Shown: positions 2,451-11,119 of the stretch, one piece after another | How the letters are laid out: each line of letters opens with the position of its first letter | Position numbering within the stretch: the first letter of the stretch is position 1 | NCBI GenBank assembly: GCA_030637775.1 | Contig: DAOWFY010000079.1 | Location: forward strand, 1 to 12,048 | DNA length: 12,048 nt | Reading direction: 5' to 3' | DNA from: DAOVGU01 sp030637775 [NCBI: bacterium] | Lineage (GTDB): Bacteria; Ratteibacteria; UBA8468 | Notes under the pieces: generated by a model | The model's input: the letters and a program-made list of their open reading frames with translations, nothing else | Told to the model about the DNA's origin: nothing | Database searches by the model: none | Made by a program: the position numbers and the translations under genes

Positions 2451-2481
2451 AGTTATTTCTCCTTTTCTATCCTTTTCACAG

Positions 2482-2554
2482 TAGCCCCAAGGGGATTCGA
2501 ACCCCTGCCTGATGGCTGAGAACCACCTGTCCTAAACCCCTAGACGATAGGGCC
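2482..2554 (-). tRNA. tRNA-Glu (anticodon CTC)
   Basis: The minus strand folds as a 73-base cloverleaf: acceptor GGCCCTA against TGGGGCT, D-stem GTCT/GGAC, anticodon stem GGTGG/CCATC with loop TTCTCAG (anticodon CTC), and T-arm AGGGG-TTCGAAT-CCCCT. The 3' CCA is not encoded. The terminal pair is a G1-U72 wobble and the variable loop has four bases. It lies just upstream of rpmA in the same direction. Confidence 0.93.
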
Positions 2555-2559
2555 AATGT

Positions 2560-2592
2560 TTTTATTATAGCACAAAATGTAGTATAATAAAA
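2560..2592. promoter_or_regulatory. Overlapping divergent promoters of the tRNA genes
   Basis: Two perfect TATAAT boxes face outward: 2583-2588 on the plus strand for tRNA-Val/tRNA-Asp, and 2564-2569 (minus) for tRNA-Glu/rpmA. Each has a TTTTAT element 17 bases upstream, which overlaps the other's -10 box. The minus box is preceded by TGC, an extended -10. Each start site would lie a few bases before its tRNA. Confidence 0.7.
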
Positions 2593-2596
2593 TTAA

Positions 2597-2669
2597 GGGC
2601 GAGTGGCTCAGCTGGGAGAGCGTCTGCCTTACACGCAGAAGGTCAGAGGTTCGAACCCTCTCTCGCCCA
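2597..2669 (+). tRNA. tRNA-Val (anticodon TAC)
   Basis: The acceptor GGGCGAG pairs with CTCGCCC. The anticodon stem TCTGC/GCAGA holds loop CTTACAC with anticodon TAC, and the T-arm is AGAGG-TTCGAAC-CCTCT. CCA is not encoded. It begins nine bases after a perfect TATAAT box. Confidence 0.97.
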
Positions 2670-2673
2670 CATC

Positions 2674-2747
2674 GGGGACGTCGCCTAGTGGATTAAGGCC
2701 CCGGACTGTCGATCCGGTGATCGTGGGTTCGAGTCCCATCGTCCCCG
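2674..2747 (+). tRNA. tRNA-Asp (anticodon GTC)
   Basis: The acceptor GGGGACG pairs with CGTCCCC. The anticodon stem CCGGA/TCCGG holds loop CTGTCGA with anticodon GTC, and the T-loop is TTCGAGT. It lies four bases after tRNA-Val and is probably on the same transcript. CCA is not encoded. Its 3' end is repeated at 2876-2894. Confidence 0.97.
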
Positions 2748-2894
2748 CTACATTGATTACGCTTAGGGCAACAAGACTGACCTGAGCGCGTGCTGTGCAC
2801 GAAAAGCCGATGGTAAGGAGGCGACAGCGAAGGCAGCCGGCTTCGGAGGAGGAGCGAGTGGCGACGGGTGAGAAGGAGTCCCATCGTCCCCGCT
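2731..2894. repeat. Duplication of the tRNA-Asp 3' end around a 126-base insert
   Basis: The 19 bases at 2731-2749 (GAGTCCCATCGTCCCCGCT), covering the tRNA-Asp 3' end plus two bases, recur exactly at 2876-2894. Between the copies lie 126 bases with no gene. They contain a perfect CGTGC-TGT-GCACG hairpin at 2789-2801 and a GC-rich purine-heavy tract. The arrangement matches what site-specific integration into a tRNA 3' end leaves behind (paired att-like repeats), but no integrase is present. A template-slip duplication is possible. Confidence 0.75.
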
Positions 2895-2901
2895 TAGCAA
2901 A

Positions 2902-3315
2902 ATGGAAAAGAGAGGATATGCCGGGAGAGAAAGGAGGAGGTTTGTTCGGGTAAGCCTTCCCCTTTTCGTCCGTTATCAAAAGAGGGATAAGATCGCTGGT
3001 AAAAATGAGCCTCTCGCTGGTCTGGTTGAGGACATTATAAGTTTGTCCCTTACCAAGAATATCAGTGAAGGCGGTATCAGGATTGTAACCAGGGAAAGAT
3101 TTGAGCCGGGAACCTATCTAACAGTTGACATCCATGTCCCTGATCGCAAAACCCCCATCCGCACCTTGACCAAGGTCGTCTGGACGAAGAAAAGGCCACT
3201 TCGCTCTGGCTACGATACAGGAGTTCGCTTCATTAGGGTAGAGAAGGGAGGTAGAAAAGACCTTTCCTTCTATCTTTCCACTTTTCAAAAGGTGGAGGAG
3301 TTAACTGCAGAGTAG
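2902..3315 (+). CDS. PilZ-domain protein, probable cyclic-di-GMP receptor
   Basis: PilZ domains bind cyclic di-GMP and relay its level to motility, polysaccharide or adhesion machinery. The 137-residue protein has both binding signatures: RRFVR (RxxxR, residues 12-16), and NISEGG (residues 53-58), fitting the D/NxSxxG motif. A beta-rich stretch and a final TGVRFI strand complete the fold. No other domain, signal peptide or membrane segment is visible, so its partner is unknown. The ATG at 2902 is the only start after an in-frame stop at 2869, yet no ribosome site precedes it at a useful distance. The tRNA-end repeat finishes only seven bases upstream. Its 3' end overlaps convergent folC by 15 bases. 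Confidence 0.85.
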   Translation: MEKRGYAGRERRRFVRVSLPLFVRYQKRDKIAGKNEPLAGLVEDIISLSLTKNISEGGIRIVTRERFEPGTYLTVDIHVPDRKTPIRTLTKVVWTKKRPLRSGYDTGVRFIRVEKGGRKDLSFYLSTFQKVEELTAE

Positions 3316-4581: not shown

Positions 4582-5423
4582 TTAGAAAAGATGGAGAGAA
4601 TTTTGGCAAGAGTAGGTTTGATCTCTTTGCGGGGAAGCACTAAATCAATCATCCCATGCTTAAAGAGGAATTCGCTTCTCTGGAAGCCTTTGGGCAATTT
4701 CTGCCGGATGGTCTGCTCAATCACCCGGGGTCCGGTAAAGCCAATTAAAGCCTTGGGCTCAGCTAAGATGATATCTCCCAAGAGGGCATAACTGGCCGCT
4801 ACCCCGGCCATGGTGGGGTCGGTAAGCAGGGAGATATAAAGCACACCTGCCCTTTTTAATTTTCCGATGGCCGAGGCGGTCTTGGCCATCTGCATTAAGG
4901 AGAGCATCCCTTCATGCATTCTTGCTCCCCCTCCACCGGCCGATACGGAAAGGAAGGGGATTTTTTTCTCTAAAGCGCTCTCGGCAGCTCGGGCAATCTT
5001 TTCTCCCACAACCGAGCCCATACTGCCCATAATGAAGTGGGAATCTGAGACGGCCAAAATTATCGGGCATCCTGAGAGTTTGCCTTCGCCGGCGATAACC
5101 GCCTCTGAAAGTCCTGTTTTCTCTCTCGCCTCCTTGAGCTTCTCCTGATAGGGCTGTTGGGACCGGAAATCAAGGGGGTCAGCCGAGGAAATCTCTTTAT
5201 CGCTCTCCTGGAAGGAATTCTCGTCCAAGATAAGATTTATCCGCTCTTCGGCGGTGAGCCTGAAATGGTGTTCGCACTTGGGGCAGACCTTGAGGTTCTC
5301 CGTTAATATTTTCTTATAGATAACCCTGCCGCAGCTATCGCACTTCTCCCAGAGATCCTTCTTGATCTCTCTTTTCTCTCTTATTGGCAGAACTGCATAC
5401 TTCCTCTTCTTAAACCAGGCCAT
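4578..5423 (-). CDS. accD: Acetyl-CoA carboxylase carboxyltransferase subunit beta
   Basis: AccD, with AccA, moves the carboxyl group from carboxybiotin to acetyl-CoA, making malonyl-CoA for fatty acid synthesis. The 281-residue protein opens with a four-cysteine zinc ribbon (C28, C31, C47, C50: CDSCGR and CPKCEH). The crotonase-like carboxyltransferase core follows, with VIAGEGKLSGCP, FIMGSMGSVVGEK, GGGGARMHEGMLSLMQMAKT (163-182), TDPTMAGVAASYA and GFTGPRVIEQTI. It overlaps dapA by 14 bases and folC by four. The accD-folC pairing is also found in E. coli. No accA or biotin carboxylase gene is in the window. Confidence 0.96.
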   Translation of the reverse strand: MAWFKKRKYAVLPIREKREIKKDLWEKCDSCGRVIYKKILTENLKVCPKCEHHFRLTAEERINLILDENSFQESDKEISSADPLDFRSQQPYQEKLKEAREKTGLSEAVIAGEGKLSGCPIILAVSDSHFIMGSMGSVVGEKIARAAESALEKKIPFLSVSAGGGGARMHEGMLSLMQMAKTASAIGKLKRAGVLYISLLTDPTMAGVAASYALLGDIILAEPKALIGFTGPRVIEQTIRQKLPKGFQRSEFLFKHGMIDLVLPRKEIKPTLAKILSIFSK

Positions 5424-6284: not shown

Positions 6285-6593
6285 CTATTTAGCCCTAAAC
6301 TTAATCTCCCTAATCCCGGGCATAACCTCCTTTAATTTGGTCAGAATCCTTTCCTTCTCCATTAAAAGATGAGAAAGATGCGGTGAGCTATCAATCAGGA
6401 TATGCAAGGTTCCTTTTTTTAGCCCCTTAATCCTGGCATGCGCCGCTGTTTCCTCTCCAATTAGAGATTTCCAGACACCAACAATATCCTCCCGGCTCGG
6501 CGCTCCTCTTGCTCTTATCGGCTTTCCCTTCACTATTTTCTCAATTATACCCGGAATAATCTCTCCAATCCTCTGGGGGTCAGGTCTCCACAT
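6285..6593 (-). CDS. dciA: DUF721 / DciA-type helicase loader
   Basis: DciA loads the replicative helicase DnaB in most bacteria that lack DnaC or DnaI; it belongs to the DUF721 family. The 102-residue product has the family pattern: an N-terminal IGEIIPGIIEKIVKG helix, VWKSLIGEETAAHARIKGLKKGTLHILIDSSPHLSHLL, and a basic C-terminus IREIKFRAK. Position near dnaN supports this. The ATG at 6593 lies inside the inverted repeat 6574-6604, so codons 1 to 6 (MWRPDP) come from that repeat. The ribosome site is poor, and a six-codon frame (ATG at 6600, ending at 6580) overlaps the start. Translation may therefore depend on upstream cassette genes. Confidence 0.8.
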   Translation of the reverse strand: MWRPDPQRIGEIIPGIIEKIVKGKPIRARGAPSREDIVGVWKSLIGEETAAHARIKGLKKGTLHILIDSSPHLSHLLMEKERILTKLKEVMPGIREIKFRAK

Positions 6594-6604
6594 TTGACAT
6601 TTTG
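6574..6604 (+). repeat. Left terminal inverted repeat of the cassette
   Basis: The plus strand reads TGGGGGTCAGGTCTCCACAT and continues TTGACATTTTG. It matches the complement of 8456-8486 at 24 of 31 positions. It contains the presumed dciA start codon (6591-6593, minus strand). Confidence 0.7.
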
Positions 6605-6630
6605 TTCTTTTTTCTTGGTAATGCTTCTAA

Positions 6631-7152
6631 TTACCCGAATGGAGGTATATCGACCGGCAAGCCAACCCTCATAAAGAATCTTGCGAAAGCCTGAGATAAA
6701 TGCTCTCTGTAAGGAGGTAATAAGCGCAATCTTTTACCTCTTTTTTTAGCTAAATCTATAATAAAATCAAAAGGGACGCTATAAATACTCCGAAAATCAA
6801 CAATCAAATAATCCGTTTCAAATCCATCTATCTCACATTTATTCAGGAGATGATAACCTGGTAAATGTCCTCGCCTTAAGGATTCTTTCGTTTTTTTCTT
6901 TTTATAATTTGGATTCTTTTCTTCGAATTCTTTTAGTGTCCAAATCGGGCAAACAAGAACCAAATCAAGTTTCCTTTGCTCAAGATCACATGATTGGCTC
7001 ATAACGGTCACATCATATTCAATAACTTCAGTGGATACTTTCCCTAATTCTATTGCTGTAGTGGGGACTACAACGGGACAGGAGTTTACAAAATCCCCTT
7101 GCAATAGTAGTTCACTGCCCTCCACTATATCGTACCATGGATACTTTTTCAT
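6631..7152 (-). CDS. Uncharacterised protein with GDFVNSCPV and SQSCDL motifs
   Basis: I do not recognise a named family. The product (173 residues from the ATG at 7152) starts MKKYPWYDIVEGSELLLQGDF and contains VNSCPVVVP, then VTVMSQSCDLEQRKLDLVLVCPI. A lysine-rich loop NPNYKKKKTKES, a strand-rich TDYLIVDFRSIYSVPFDFI stretch and a C-terminal SQAFARFFMRVGLPVDIPPF follow. The pattern suggests a compact beta-rich soluble domain with conserved cysteines; no signal peptide or membrane helix is visible. I recall similar SQ(S/T)CDL-containing hypothetical proteins in other genomes but no function for them. An in-frame TTG at 7161 is an alternative start. It is the last cassette gene, 30 bases after the 133-residue frame. 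Confidence 0.7.
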   Translation of the reverse strand: MKKYPWYDIVEGSELLLQGDFVNSCPVVVPTTAIELGKVSTEVIEYDVTVMSQSCDLEQRKLDLVLVCPIWTLKEFEEKNPNYKKKKTKESLRRGHLPGYHLLNKCEIDGFETDYLIVDFRSIYSVPFDFIIDLAKKRGKRLRLLPPYREHLSQAFARFFMRVGLPVDIPPFG

Positions 7153-7182
7153 GCTTCTCAATCTTCCTCTTTGACCCCTAAC

Positions 7183-7584
7183 TTAAAATTCTTCTGGTTC
7201 AACAATTCTGGGCTCCCCTCTTCTAATGTTTTCCACCTTCATCTCAACGGTATATCTTTTCCTCGGTGGCATTCGCACGATAAAGTCATGTTCTAACATT
7301 TCCGTGACTATATCTTCTTCTGATATATCTACAATTTCTTCTATCAAAGACGTTTCATTCTTTATCTCATAACGTGGCCAGACCGAAGACAAATCAATTT
7401 CAAGCAAAGATAACGCCTGATATAAAAACGGACCTTTTAACCGTTTCTCCCTTATCAAAATAGATAATAGCCTATTCCATGCTTCGTTTTTGTCTATCTC
7501 CTCTACTCTTGAGCTTATAGCAAACGGGCAGGGAATTGGATAATCTTGGTATGTAACATCTTGCAATGTTAACTGATATATCAT
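7183..7584 (-). CDS. Uncharacterised 133-residue cassette protein
   Basis: No family is recognised. The sequence begins MIYQLTLQDVTYQDYPIPCPFAISSR, has a central helical part (EAWNRLLSILIREKRLKGPFLYQALSLL) and an acidic stretch around EEIVDISEEDIVTEMLEHDF, and ends in basic-then-acidic VENIRRGEPRIVEPEEF. It is soluble, without a signal peptide or membrane segment. The ATG forms an ATGA overlap with the stop of the TIGR04255-type gene, and an AAGGAGG site lies in the final codons of that gene. The two are thus translationally coupled and likely made in fixed proportion. A small partner or regulator of the larger protein is possible but unproven. Confidence 0.75.
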   Translation of the reverse strand: MIYQLTLQDVTYQDYPIPCPFAISSRVEEIDKNEAWNRLLSILIREKRLKGPFLYQALSLLEIDLSSVWPRYEIKNETSLIEEIVDISEEDIVTEMLEHDFIVRMPPRKRYTVEMKVENIRRGEPRIVEPEEF

Positions 7585-8354
7585 TCAAACCTCCTTATTA
7601 ATTCTCCTTCTATCATCTTAAAAAACCAATCATCTGTTAATTCATGAGCCTCTTTTACCCATATAGCAATTTCACTCTTAACCTTAGGAGCATCATCTCC
7701 GATTGACTGAACTTGGGTTTCCCATATTAAAGCATTTGCTCCTTCTCTCTTTCCCCGTGTAAATCTCAGGTGTACTGCCCCCTTAGGCTTTGTAGATGGA
7801 AAAGAAAATCTTAAGTCAAAGCCTAAAGGCAATTTACTAACTCTAGCATCTTCAAATAGTTGTTTACGGATATCTATATTCATTTTCATTTTCCCCTTCA
7901 AAAAAGTGAATATGTCATCTTTTCCATAATCAAAGTCAATGGCATCAATATACCGTAATAACAACCCATTAACCCTCAAATTGTTTTCTGCATCTGGATA
8001 TGCCTCAAAAAGTGTATCCAAAAGGTGAGATATTCTTTTCTCAAAATCTTCCCACACATATCCTTCTGTATCATTTAGGGTAATGATTCCGGGCCCTATT
8101 TGAATGAGGGGCCATTCATTTTTGCCTTTCCTAAATCGGTGTTGAACAACATATCCTGCAATTTCATCCGGCATGGTTGCAGTAGGTAATTGCTCAGGGA
8201 AAGGATATCCCTCCTTGACCCTATCATATATTCTGCCAATCAGCATTTTGTAGTGCGGATCTATTTTCAATCCAGACTTTGGTTCTTGTAGTTCCCACCG
8301 TAACTCAAATATTGCCTCTACAAGAGGCTTGTTTTTTAGGATTTTTCTACCCAT
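7581..8354 (-). CDS. TIGR04255-type sporadically distributed protein
   Basis: The 257-residue length and the N-terminal KNKPLVEAIFELRW fit the TIGR04255 family, whose members are scattered among unrelated bacteria and have no established biochemical role. Other features are PLIQIGPGIITLND, YVWEDFEKRISHLLD, LLLRYIDAIDFDY, a strand-rich GFDLRFSFPSTKPKGAVHLRF, and a C-terminal KEAHELTDDWFFKMIEGELIRRFE typical of the family's closing helix. The protein looks soluble. A strong GGAGG site sits seven bases before the ATG at 8354. It is the first intact gene of the cassette and is coupled to the next one. Assignment is from memory of the N-terminal motif. Confidence 0.75.
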   Translation of the reverse strand: MGRKILKNKPLVEAIFELRWELQEPKSGLKIDPHYKMLIGRIYDRVKEGYPFPEQLPTATMPDEIAGYVVQHRFRKGKNEWPLIQIGPGIITLNDTEGYVWEDFEKRISHLLDTLFEAYPDAENNLRVNGLLLRYIDAIDFDYGKDDIFTFLKGKMKMNIDIRKQLFEDARVSKLPLGFDLRFSFPSTKPKGAVHLRFTRGKREGANALIWETQVQSIGDDAPKVKSEIAIWVKEAHELTDDWFFKMIEGELIRRFE

Positions 8355-8458
8355 TTTATAACCTCCGTATTCTTTTCTAAAGCCGCCACTTCACCTAACT
8401 TGTCTATATCCGAAATTAACTTAGGACATATCTCCTTTGGCCGATGACTATAACCCAA
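8336..8458 (-). pseudogene. Possible truncated frame at the cassette head
   Basis: A 40-codon open frame runs from TTG (8458) to TAA (8336), overlapping the TIGR04255-type gene by 19 bases. Its product, LGYSHRPKEICPKLISDI and on to NTEVIKWVEKS, has the mixed charged/hydrophobic composition of a real C-terminus. The frame stays open upstream into the inverted repeat, so it may be the tail of a gene whose 5' part was lost at the repeat boundary. It has no good start or ribosome site. Chance is not excluded. Confidence 0.3.
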
Positions 8459-8486
8459 TTTGTTAAATGTAGAGGTCTGACCCCTA
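8456..8486 (-). repeat. Right terminal inverted repeat of the cassette
   Basis: The minus strand reads TAGGGGTCAGACCTCTACAT and continues TTAACAAATTG. Its first three bases are the TAG stop of dnaN. The inner part, AGAGGTC-T-GACCCCT (8471-8485), is itself a near-perfect 15-base palindrome. Confidence 0.7.
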
Positions 8487-9581
8487 TTCCGTTTTTACGG
8501 GCATCAGGATATATTTATATTCCTCCTCAGTATCGGGACGAATAAGAGCCGGTTTTAAGGGATCGGAAATCCCCACAATTACATTTTCGACCTCTAAGCT
8601 TTTCAAAACATCCAGGATATAGACAGGGTTAAAGGAAACGGCGATCTTCTCGCCAGAGTATTCAACCGGAATTTGTTCCCTGGCTTCACCCGCTTCCGGG
8701 GTATTAATGGAGATAACTATTTCTTTGGGGACAAAATCAAGCCTTATTGAGCTATGGCGTTCAGTGGTGAGGAGACTGATACGTCTTACCGCAGCAATCA
8801 ACCTTTCCCTTTTCACTCTTATCTCCTTTAACTCCTCCCCCGAGGGAAAGATGGTCTCATAGCTGGGAAACCGGCCTTCAATAAGTTGAGAGATAATAAG
8901 CAGGTCGGCTGTCTTAAACATAATCTGATTAGGAGTGATGGTGATTTCAACCTCTCCTTCTTCGGCCAAACATTTCTCCAGCTCATCGATTAACTTTAAA
9001 GGTAAAATTAAGTCCATCTCTGCTGGTGAGGAATAGGACTTCTTGATATAGGCAAGCCTCCTGGTATCGGTTCCTACCAAAATCAAGCTGTCCTTTTTTA
9101 GGCTAAAAAGCAGTCCTCGCAGATAGGCCCTCGTCTCATCATAGGCGATAGAGAATTTTGTTTTCTTTAACATCTCTTTTAAAACCTCTTGTTTCATTCT
9201 TAGAACAGTCCCTTTCTTAACTTTGGGCAGGCCAGGGAATTCCTCGATCTTTAAACCGGGTAAGGTAAATGCAATCTTACCAACCGTTATCTGAGTTTTT
9301 TCGGTTTTCTCTTTAATGATATTAATTTCAGCTTCCGGTAATTCCCGGATGATACCGGCGAACCTTCTTCCCGGCACAAGGAGGCTCCCCTCTCTTTTTG
9401 TTTTACAAAGGATTGCTGTTCTCATCGTCAACTCTAAATCCGTAGCGGTCAAAAATATTTTATTTTTTTCTGCCTGTAAGAAAATAAAGGAAAGTGCGGG
9501 AAGAGAAGGTTTTAGACTAATAACTCCCACAATCCTCTGCAATCCATTTAAAAGATCTTTTCTTCTAATATTTATCTCCAT
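8484..9581 (-). CDS. dnaN: DNA polymerase III beta subunit (sliding clamp)
   Basis: DnaN forms the dimeric ring that tethers DNA polymerase III to the template. The 365-residue length is standard. Recognisable segments are the N-terminal MEINIRRKDLLNGLQRIVGV, FLTATDLELTMRT, GSLLVPGRRFAGIIREL, ETRAYLRGLLF, LVGTDTRRLAYIKK, EGRFPSYETIFP and VSFNPVYILDVL near the end. The C-terminus YILMPVKTE keeps the MPV peptide typical of bacterial clamps. An AAGGAG site lies six bases before the ATG. The TAG stop is the first triplet of the cassette's right inverted repeat, so the last residues may have been altered by that insertion. It lies 179 bases after dnaA. Confidence 0.97.
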   Translation of the reverse strand: MEINIRRKDLLNGLQRIVGVISLKPSLPALSFIFLQAEKNKIFLTATDLELTMRTAILCKTKREGSLLVPGRRFAGIIRELPEAEINIIKEKTEKTQITVGKIAFTLPGLKIEEFPGLPKVKKGTVLRMKQEVLKEMLKKTKFSIAYDETRAYLRGLLFSLKKDSLILVGTDTRRLAYIKKSYSSPAEMDLILPLKLIDELEKCLAEEGEVEITITPNQIMFKTADLLIISQLIEGRFPSYETIFPSGEELKEIRVKRERLIAAVRRISLLTTERHSSIRLDFVPKEIVISINTPEAGEAREQIPVEYSGEKIAVSFNPVYILDVLKSLEVENVIVGISDPLKPALIRPDTEEEYKYILMPVKTE

Positions 9582-9767: not shown

Positions 9768-11119
9768 CCTTTAATCTTAACTACCATCTTCTCAGTCTCT
9801 TCCTTAAAATAAGGGTCCTTCTCCGTCATTTTTTTAATTTTTTTACAGGCATAGATAATAGTGGCATGATCCTTTCCTCCAAAACTATCACCAATTTGAG
9901 GTAAAGAAGCATCGGTCAATTCTCTGGCCAAATACATCGCAATCTGCCGGGGCAGAACAAATGACTTAATTCTTCTTCTTCCTTTAAGATCGGAGATATG
10001 AAGATTAAAATTTTCTGCAACCTTCTCTAAAATAGTCTCTACGGTAATTGGTTTTTGATAGACTTCTGTAATAATATCCTTTAATACCTCCTTAGCAAAT
10101 GGAAGATCTATTCTTTTGGCAAAAAGGGAACTGCAGGCAATAAGTTTGGTAAGCGCACCTTCTAATAGACGAATATTACTTTTTATCCTTTCGGCAATAA
10201 AATCTATTACCTCCTCATCAAAACTTACCCTCTTGATCTCCATCTTCTTCTTTAAAATAGCAATTCTGGTCTCTAAATCCGGGGGCTGGATGTCCGCGAC
10301 AAGCCCCCACTCAAAACGGCTTACCAATCGCTTCTCTAAGGCAGCGATCTCCTTGGGAGGCCGGTCTGAGGAGATTACTACCTGTTTATGATTATCATAA
10401 AGGGTATTAAAGGTGTGAAAGAATTCTTCCTGAATTCTTTCCTTGCCGGCAAGGAAATGGATGTCGTCAAGGAGGAGAATATTAAGGCTACGAAACCTGT
10501 TTCTAAAGGCGTTGGTTGTACGATTCTGGATACTGTCGATGTACTGGTTGACAAACTTTTCACTGGGAAGATATCTTACTCGATATCCACCTCGCTCCTT
10601 AATAAAATGACCAATTGCCTGCATCAGATGAGTCTTTCCCAATCCTACCGATCCATAGATGAAGAGTGGATTGTAAGCAGTGCCAATTGATTGGGCTACA
10701 GCAAGAGCAGCAGCGTGCGCCAGCCTATTGGAACTTCCAACAACAAAATTATCGAAAATAAAATTGGGGTTAAGCCCGGAGTGGTCAGCCCTTGCCGCTT
10801 CCTTCACGCGGAAACTCTGGGTCGCCTGCCTGCCGGCAGGCAGGATAGGAGCCGGTTCATTGGGGTAATCTTCCGGCAGGGAAAATTCAATTAAAATGTC
10901 CCTTCTAACAACAGAGGAAACCGCTCTTTTGATCAGGGGAAGGTAGTGGTCTTTTACCCAGTTCTTAAAGAAAGTATCCGGCACTTTTAATGTTATCTCC
11001 TTATTCGTAAAGGAGAAGGCTTTTATTGGTAGAAACCACAGCTTGAAGGCCTTGGGATCAACCTCTTTTTTGATTATATCAAGAGCCTTCTCCCAGATAT
11101 CCACAGCCTTTTCTTGCAT
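9761..11119 (-). CDS. dnaA: Chromosomal replication initiator protein DnaA
   Basis: DnaA binds boxes at oriC, forms an ATP-dependent filament and opens the duplex. The 452-residue protein shows domain I (about 1-75), a variable linker (80-115), the AAA+ domain with NFIFDNFVVG (119-128), Walker A GSVGLGKTH (156-164), Walker B LLLDDIHFL (215-223) and ISSDRPPKEI (249-258), and the DNA-binding domain IV ending in the signature GGKDHATIIYACKKI (414-428). Linker residues 92-99 (ILPAGRQA) are encoded across a 20-base perfect palindrome, an apparent repeat insertion in the part of DnaA that tolerates change. The ribosome site before the ATG is weak. DnaA boxes upstream suggest self-regulation. Confidence 0.98.
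   Translation of the reverse strand: MQEKAVDIWEKALDIIKKEVDPKAFKLWFLPIKAFSFTNKEITLKVPDTFFKNWVKDHYLPLIKRAVSSVVRRDILIEFSLPEDYPNEPAPILPAGRQATQSFRVKEAARADHSGLNPNFIFDNFVVGSSNRLAHAAALAVAQSIGTAYNPLFIYGSVGLGKTHLMQAIGHFIKERGGYRVRYLPSEKFVNQYIDSIQNRTTNAFRNRFRSLNILLLDDIHFLAGKERIQEEFFHTFNTLYDNHKQVVISSDRPPKEIAALEKRLVSRFEWGLVADIQPPDLETRIAILKKKMEIKRVSFDEEVIDFIAERIKSNIRLLEGALTKLIACSSLFAKRIDLPFAKEVLKDIITEVYQKPITVETILEKVAENFNLHISDLKGRRRIKSFVLPRQIAMYLARELTDASLPQIGDSFGGKDHATIIYACKKIKKMTEKDPYFKEETEKMVVKIKGE
10825..10844. repeat. Perfect 20-base palindrome inside dnaA
   Basis: CCTGCCTGCCGGCAGGCAGG is fully self-complementary and GC-rich in an AT-richer gene. Read on the minus strand it encodes the core of ILPAGRQA in the DnaA linker. 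I recall LPAGRQ-encoding palindromes as dispersed in-frame repeats in candidate-phylum genomes. Confidence 0.85.

What the first reader, a model, noticed from the sequence alone, without database searches (positions are those of the whole stretch)
6574..8486. Inverted-repeat-bounded cassette inserted between dnaN and dciA
Seen: the 31-base ends 6574-6604 and 8456-8486 are inverted repeats with 24 of 31 identities (mismatches at positions 2, 11, 12, 16, 23, 27, 28), and everything between reads as one accessory block with lower G+C in the stretches I counted. Known: dnaN is usually followed closely by recF, dciA or gyrB. Inferred: a 1.9-kb mobile unit without its own transposase entered the replication locus.
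Basis: partly seen in the sequence, partly recalled or inferred. Interest (0 to 1): 0.8.

Follow-up and report, generated by a model that had tools for sequence, protein, structure and literature searches.

The report
Toxin-like operon between mobile-element ends
A small, widely traded toxin-antitoxin-like gene set sits between two core replication genes, framed by short repeats that belong to the organism's own transposase family; the repeats look older than the genes they frame, so the block is probably not a ready-made jumping unit.

Summary
The inverted repeat is real: 24/31, mismatches as listed; 200 Markov versions of the window reach at most 20. Its arms belong to a dispersed family (43 places in this draft genome, reversed pattern 0) that also bounds the genome's two Y1/HUH transposase genes and fits TIRYT ends (GGGGWSAS). 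These ends lie at gene junctions, as solos or short inverted pairs. The cargo, absent from 60 relatives, is a three-gene TIGR04255 operon with homologues in distant bacteria and archaea; its third protein models as a MazF/CcdB fold, and some homologous operons carry PIN or MazF genes there. One relative is empty at dnaN-dciA; two others each keep one arm at the matching position (within one base) beside different DNA. At a second site a 130-bp pair here corresponds to 6.6 kb of genes between the same ends in the sister species. I read this as resident transposase ends framing captured cargo; movement as one unit is not shown, and end-bearing junctions were not enriched for large insertions (2/15 against 6/67).

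The parts
8456..8486 (-). dnaN-side end, type A (core GGGGTCAGACCTCTACATTTAACA at 8461-8484); its first G completes dnaN's TAG stop
6574..6604 (+). dciA-side end, type B' (core GGGGTCAGGTCTCCACATTTGACA at 6576-6599); its inner ATG is the start codon of the dciA frame (MWRPDP...)
7581..8354 (-). TIGR04255-family protein, 257 aa, first gene of the cargo operon
   Evidence: NCBIfam TIGR04255 E 5e-41; 24 homologous loci
7183..7584 (-). 133-aa middle gene, variable among homologous operons
   Evidence: no Pfam family; weak PADLOC hit NsnC E 8e-4; alignment A2
6631..7161 (-). third gene, 176 aa from TTG (the ATG at 7152 is the likelier start), MazF/CcdB-like fold predicted
   Evidence: no Pfam or PADLOC family for any of nine members and one PDB sequence match at E 0.53; AlphaFold model pLDDT 75.7 matches MazF chains
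8382..8399 (-). conserved leader motif GTTAGGTGAAGTGGCGGC upstream of the first cargo gene; its first seven bases fit the integron core site GTTRRRY
   Evidence: aligned leaders of homologous operons; the attC consensus is recalled
8484..9581 (-). dnaN, upstream flank in the direction of transcription
6285..6593 (-). dciA, downstream flank in the direction of transcription

Best explanation
The arms are ends of the lineage's own TIRYT/RAYT-type repeat family, which settles at stop/start junctions of adjacent genes and can supply a stop to the incoming gene and a start to the outgoing one. They were at the dnaN-dciA junction before the present cargo (shown in part: each arm has a counterpart at the matching position in a different relative). 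A horizontally travelling three-gene TIGR04255 operon, most likely a toxin-antitoxin-like module (toxin fold predicted, activity inferred), was captured between them in the lineage of this genome. How it was inserted (illegitimate insertion, or recombination between identical ends) is inferred and not resolved. The operon lies co-directionally between the two replication genes, and the repeats leave both neighbours with usable reading frames.
For: The ends bound both own Y1_Tnp genes (C119 11441/12601, C86 1941/2926). Pattern hits in 4 of 35 phylum genomes, all four in this family, 0 in the 31 others. Junction placement: outer edge more than 30 nt inside an ORF in 16 of 141 ends against 88% of 13,550 random points in the same loci; an incoming stop within -10..+30 nt in 66 of 99 against 254 of 9,124. 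dciA-side end at the same base in G001 with a DUF4258 protein and a weakly MqsA/YokU-like one beside it; a dnaN-side end within one base in G003; G002 empty with TGA-G-ATG. Two type A solos (C136, C29) face type B' solos at the same junctions in G002 (flush for C136, about 7 bases apart for C29), so mixed subtypes need not mean separate origins. Cargo: 0 of 60 relatives but 24 loci in other lineages, 11 of them at 67-85% best-segment identity, all three genes together in 8 of 24. Third gene is PIN in four loci and PemK/MazF in the two such loci scanned. Second site: 130-bp pair in G000 C110, 6.6 kb with five genes between the same ends in G001, the cargo beginning beside a surviving stretch of pair interior.
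Against: No relative keeps both ends at dnaN-dciA without this cargo, so 'both ends first' is pieced together from two species; a preference for junctions could place ends at the same position twice. Ends are not always kept: of 15 end-bearing junctions compared with G001, 9 have an end in G001 too and 6 do not. End-bearing junctions were not enriched for length differences (>=500 bp: 2 of 15 against 6 of 67, Fisher p 0.63; >=150 bp: 2 of 15 against 15 of 67). No clear remnant of a pair interior or of the transposase gene was found inside the window block.
Confidence: 0.58

Rival explanations
1. The 1.9-kb block is a non-autonomous passenger element: the two ends and everything between were moved together by one of the genome's two Y1 transposases acting in trans.
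For: Inverted ends of the right family and orientation; two transposase genes in the genome, each bounded by such ends; the inner bases of the window ends (GACATTTT, AACAAATT) resemble those of transposase-bearing copies more than the GACAAAAT of most solos; empty site in G002.
Against: Arms of different subtypes; dciA-side arm shared at the same base with G001, which holds other cargo; no second copy in the draft genome; ends absent from the 24 homologous loci.
Confidence: 0.17
2. Pure coincidence: the operon was inserted at a permissive junction and two solo ends later landed on either side, with no relation to each other.
For: Solos are common (14 in the 29 own-genome loci); a convergent solo pair within 1.9 kb arises in about 8% of random placements of 16 solos; differences of >=500 bp occur at 6 of 67 end-free junctions too.
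Against: Both end positions have counterparts in relatives that lack the cargo, which argues that the ends came first.
Confidence: 0.2
3. The cargo reached the site as an integron gene cassette inserted by an integron integrase at a secondary site.
For: The leader's start fits GTTRRRY and the leader is partly conserved among homologous operons. In L120 the operon has attC-like sites on both sides (upstream z -6.5, downstream -1.7), L143 has one downstream (z -5.1).
Against: Nothing attC-like follows the third gene in the window (26 nt to the end), and the stretch upstream does not fold (z 0.35). Other candidates fold weakly or not: L124 -1.0, L126 -3.0, L123 0.8. No integron integrase over the curated cut-off in any of 35 phylum genomes; 34 have sub-threshold matches, as do all 14 control genomes, and G022 and G003 hold the strongest pieces.
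Confidence: 0.1

Closest known systems
[quoted passage not shown] PMC3733652, passages; subclass 2.1 in PMC6006769, passages and section 20)
   Same: Y1_Tnp transposase with a Bac_DnaA_C-like C-terminal segment, long terminal inverted repeats starting GGGGTCAG (fits GGGGWSAS), ends dispersed as solos and dimers
   Different: The window block holds a three-gene operon and no transposase, with ends of two subtypes; the passages read mention no case with passenger genes
REPINs / REP elements with RAYTs (PMC3116915, passages)
   Same: Short inverted pairs and solos at gene ends, thought to be moved by a Y1 transposase in trans
   Different: No GT[AG]G tag and no stable hairpin in the single ends; interiors often differ, once inverted, at matching sites
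TIGR04255-family operons and MazF/PIN toxin modules
   Same: Conserved gene order in 8 of 24 loci; third gene with predicted MazF-like fold, elsewhere PIN or PemK family
   Different: Third gene here has no Pfam family; antitoxin role of either other gene untested; no paper in the held library contains the word TIGR04255
Integron gene cassettes, including archaeal ones (PMC9668308, passages)
   Same: Homologues in two Methanosarcinales MAGs stand beside attC-like palindromes; cross-domain spread; toxin-antitoxin content
   Different: Nothing attC-like after the operon and no integron integrase over cut-off in the window's draft genome

Membership tests
TIRYT / TIRtron | Y1/HUH tyrosine transposase (PF01797) in the genome | tested here: met
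   Two genes, E 2e-16 and 6e-16; NCBIfam REP_Tyr_transpos E 8e-19 and 5e-21, both below its cut-off of 80 bits
TIRYT / TIRtron | C-terminal helix-turn-helix (Bac_DnaA_C-like) | tested here: met
   PF08299 E 5.8e-7 and 1.5e-4, both under the gathering score of 31.5 bits
TIRYT / TIRtron | Transposase gene bounded by inverted repeats with GGGGWSAS | tested here: met
   C119 and C86 elements, GGGGTCAG at both ends
TIRYT / TIRtron | The block itself encodes the transposase | tested here: not met
   Three cargo genes, none matching a transposase family; so the block is not a TIRtron
GTAG REP / REPIN | GT[AG]G tag next to a stable palindromic hairpin | tested here: not met
   No such tag at the outer edge; three single ends fold no better than shuffles
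Toxin-antitoxin module | Toxin of a known fold in a small operon | tested here: met
   Best model of the third protein (pLDDT 75.7; two of five models below 50) matches MazF (Foldseek E 1.9e-4; VIA Z 9.7, rmsd 3.0 over 106 residues), with CcdB chains up to Z 8.7; sequence searches alone find nothing significant
Toxin-antitoxin module | Toxicity neutralised by a partner | not testable with these tools
   needs expression assays
Integron gene cassette | attC site after the cassette and an integron integrase in the genome | tested here: not met
   26 nt between the third gene and the end, no attC-like site; TIGR02249 over cut-off in 0 of 35 phylum genomes. The genome is a draft (83.5% complete), so absence is provisional

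The most novel reading that the evidence does not exclude
End pairs of a TIRYT-type transposase family act as fixed docks: the ends stay at a gene junction across species and genera while what lies between is exchanged, inverted, or replaced by gene cargo (toxin-like operon here, five metabolic genes in the sister), perhaps by transposase-made nicks or recombination at the ends.
Probability: 0.25. Interest if true: 0.78.

Novelty: new variant of a known kind. Interest (0 to 1): 0.5.

Why it matters
Repeats of this class are usually treated as miniature non-coding elements. Two sites in sister species where such ends frame several genes, one of them between dnaN and dciA, suggest that they can frame or attract gene cargo without breaking the essential neighbours, because the ends carry usable stop and start codons. 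It also points to TIGR04255 operons as a widely exchanged toxin-antitoxin-like class with interchangeable third genes.

Tried and rejected
An upstream truncated gene: a 39-residue open frame just upstream of the first cargo gene (within 8340-8460, minus strand) first looked like the C-terminus of a gene cut by the end; only one of 24 loci gave a match (E 0.016), and a motif scan of 23 loci found it in that one alone, while the alignment shows a partly conserved nucleotide leader, so the idea was dropped.

Transposase remnants inside the block: the inner 150 nt aligned to three transposase-bearing elements, 12 window tests; the best score was reached by 3 of 200 shuffles (inner right against C86, uncorrected), taken as not significant. 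Remnants of pair interiors: none above shuffles in the window, but a clear one in the G001 6.6-kb case.

Hotspot test: end-bearing junctions were not enriched for large insertions. Interior turnover: of nine orthologous comparisons, six had both interiors of at least 15 nt; one was of the same class, one an exact 15/15 inversion, four not alike (one G000 site is counted twice). Independent re-insertion is not excluded. One search compared flanks only with loci in hand, nearly all chosen for their ends, so it overstates how often ends are kept; (9 of 15) is the fairer figure. Two solo sites were searched in three relatives: C136 has a different insert of about the same length in G001 and an end in G002, in G003 only the first half matched; at C122 the matches break off near the site and settle nothing.

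Inverted repeats around 20 of the 24 homologous operons: best 18-mer arms at most equal to the shuffles' maximum except L126 (leader motif, 16 against 14) and L128 (15 against 14); L120 ties with the leader motif. The test is insensitive: the window's own arms only tied (15 against 15). The TIGR04255 protein: model pLDDT 79.4, middling matches only (TBP by Foldseek, guanidino kinases by VIA, best Z 9.1), no call made. A PADLOC hit for the 133-aa protein (E 8e-4) was not followed. The Pantoea plasmid homologue (28% identity) lies between prophage lysis and terminase genes, a lead towards defence only.

Not counted: ends with more mismatches or beyond the listed rows, and listed ends whose surroundings were not fetched (for example G001 C179, C56, C184; G002 C3, C8, C117, C35). 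The 83 loci behind searches were nearly all chosen because they hold ends, plus the dnaN loci of the relatives and one G003 transposase locus; edges within 60 bases of a locus end were left out of the 141.

Papers: passages of PMC3733652, PMC3116915, PMC9668308 and PMC3686654; passages and section 20 of PMC6006769. Searches for printed passenger cases: 'repin'+'cargo' (74 papers, ten listed, none fitting by title except a Pseudomonas comparison not read), 'rayt'+'passenger gene' (2 papers, listing only), 'dciA'+'dnaN'+'toxin-antitoxin' (0), 'toxin-antitoxin'+'REP sequences'+'RAYT' (1, listing only), 'TIRYT' (2). The attC consensus is recalled.
Full report
The window is one whole contig (12,048 bases) of a draft genome of 1.40 Mb in 177 contigs, 83.5% complete. 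The stretch between is 37.3% G+C against 45.3% for the rest, and holds three genes on the same strand as dnaN and dciA.

The arms are not private to this block. A search with the 24-base core, three mismatches allowed, gave 43 places in the own genome and none with the reversed pattern. Two subtypes exist: A (GGGGTCAGACCTCTACATTTAACA) and B (GGGGTCAGGTCTCAACATTTGACA, with a B' variant TCTCCAC). Both genes of the genome found with the Y1/HUH transposase model PF01797 are bounded by such ends, C86 by A at both sides and C119 by B. The proteins carry a sub-threshold but low-E Bac_DnaA_C-like segment at the C-terminus. The ends' GGGGTCAG fits GGGGWSAS, the consensus reported for many TIRYT ends (PMC3733652 passages; PMC6006769 section 20). 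In the window the dnaN-side arm is A and the dciA-side arm B'.

Among the loci examined, 29 of the own genome show 21 inverted pairs and 14 unpaired ends; 30 of G001 (same genus) 20 and 12; 22 of G002 (same family) 15 and 6; two of G003 one unpaired end. Of the 56 pairs, 51 are 42-209 bp long, three hold a transposase gene (1.0-1.2 kb), and two hold other genes: the window (1.9 kb) and a G001 site (6.6 kb). Neighbouring ends within 250 bp were plus-then-minus in every case in G000, G001 and G002. By the 23-base pattern with two mismatches, 4 of 35 genomes of the phylum hold the ends, all four in this family.

The ends sit at gene junctions. Only 16 of 141 outer edges lie more than 30 nt inside an open frame of at least 80 codons, against 88% of 13,550 random points in the same loci, and 66 of 99 have the stop of an incoming gene within -10 to +30 nt, against 254 of 9,124 random points. 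In 20 cases the longest open frame leaving the end begins inside it (19 at the same ATG, one at a TTG), typically as MLRPDP or MWRPDP; in several of these another ATG follows a few codons later, so only some are real start donors. dciA of this genome is a good case: MWRPDPQRIGEI and G001 MLRPDPKRIGEI against MATRIGEI in G002 and MITKIGEI in G003. dnaN's stop TAG takes its G from the other arm, while the protein ends at the same residues (KTE) as in G001 and G002.

Relatives at the dnaN-dciA junction: G002 is empty, with dnaN's TGA, one G, then dciA's ATG. G001 has about 1.1 kb of other DNA with a DUF4258 protein and one weakly like MqsA/YokU (both below the Pfam cut-offs for that second protein) and one B end, at the same base beside dciA as in the window. 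G003 has about 0.56 kb with a B' end within one base of the matching position beside dnaN. So each arm has a counterpart in a species that lacks the cargo. The difference in subtype is not decisive: the type A solos at C136 and C29 face type B' solos at the same junctions in G002, flush for C136 and about 7 bases apart for C29.

Sites often persist and contents change. Flanks of own-genome elements find an element at the same site in fetched loci of G001 or G002 in many cases, but those loci were mostly chosen for their ends; in the junction comparison 9 of 15 end-bearing junctions have an end in G001 too, 6 do not. At C110 the own genome has a 130-bp pair; G001 has 6,608 bp between the same ends, with an FAD oxidoreductase, a GNAT acetyltransferase, a sulfatase, an unassigned 363-aa protein and a family 20 glycoside hydrolase, the first gene beginning where a pair interior (like L175 and L022) leaves off. 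The sulfatase has no match at E 1e-20 in the own genome; 16 of 35 phylum genomes have one, at 39% identity or less apart from the query itself. Of six comparisons with both interiors of at least 15 nt, one pair is alike, one is an exact inversion, four differ. Against a special role for the ends: among 82 orthologous junctions, 2 of 15 with ends and 6 of 67 without differ by at least 500 bp (p 0.63), a small sample.

The cargo. The first protein is TIGR04255 (E 5e-41). It is in 0 of 60 relatives but in 24 loci of other lineages, among them Methanosarcinales, ANME-2, Synergistaceae, Firmicutes, Aminicenantes and WOR-3. Best-segment identity is 67-85% in 11 of the 24; the 85% is over a 98-residue piece of L143, and full-length copies reach 76%. 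Phages gave no match and plasmids one (28% identity), on a Pantoea plasmid between prophage lysis and terminase genes. All three genes are together in 8 of the 24 loci. Elsewhere the third gene is a PIN protein (L125, L126, L128, L140) or a PemK/MazF protein (L130 and L134 scanned). The window's third protein has no Pfam or PADLOC family and no significant PDB sequence match, but its predicted structure (best model pLDDT 75.7, nine-sequence alignment, two of five models poor) has MazF chains as best matches (Foldseek E 1.9e-4; VIA Z 9.7, rmsd 3.0, 106 residues), with CcdB close behind. A toxin-antitoxin-like module is the natural reading; activity is inferred.

None of the 24 loci has these ends within 5 mismatches (two hits at 6 and 7, taken as chance). 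Instead the leader, GTTAGGTGAAGTGGCGGC here, looks like an integron core site, and in L120 attC-like stretches stand on both sides (upstream z -6.5, downstream -1.7), with one downstream in L143 (z -5.1); candidates in L124, L126 and L123 gave -1.0, -3.0 and 0.8. Integrons are reported from archaea, with toxin-antitoxin cassettes common (PMC9668308 passages). In the window nothing attC-like follows the operon and the stretch before it does not fold, and no integron integrase passes the curated cut-off in 35 phylum genomes, though sub-threshold matches, as in all 14 controls, are general. The cassette past is therefore a lead about the donor, not a description of this block.

Verdict. The block is accessory cargo framed by ends of a TIRYT-type family that probably were there first. 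That it travels as a unit is possible (0.17), but the shared single ends, mixed subtypes and missing second copies speak against it. The most novel open reading, that such end pairs are stable docks whose contents are exchanged, rests on two cargo sites and a handful of interior swaps and is given 0.25.

Noticed in passing
G000 C73 (L025:1502-1562) and G001 C150 (L173:1527-1587): The 15-base interior of an inverted pair is exactly inverted between two species at the same site.
   Followed up: partly
G001 C87 (L155:1505-8112): Five genes (FAD oxidoreductase, GNAT, sulfatase, unassigned, GH20) between the same ends that are 130 bp apart in the window's genome.
   Followed up: partly
L120:3004-3085 and 4865-4953, L143:5672-5740: attC-like stretches beside TIGR04255 operons in Methanosarcinales MAGs; the next genes in L120 (DUF433 and a sub-threshold PIN-like fragment) also look toxin-antitoxin-like.
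   Followed up: partly
window about 10800-10845: The DnaA frame holds a short stretch ILPAGRQ that looks like a dispersed repeat inside coding sequence; G001 has a related variant.
   Followed up: no
G001 L055 about 2610-2680, G003 L057 about 2990-3150: Another likely dispersed repeat (GTCATTGCGAG...) lies in the dnaN-dciA junctions of both relatives.
   Followed up: no
G000 C34, C76, C78, C136, C170, C26 against G001: Where the own genome has an end at a junction, G001 has a different short insert, some of them palindromic.
   Followed up: partly
window 2481-2748: Three tRNA genes (Glu, Val, Asp).
   Followed up: no
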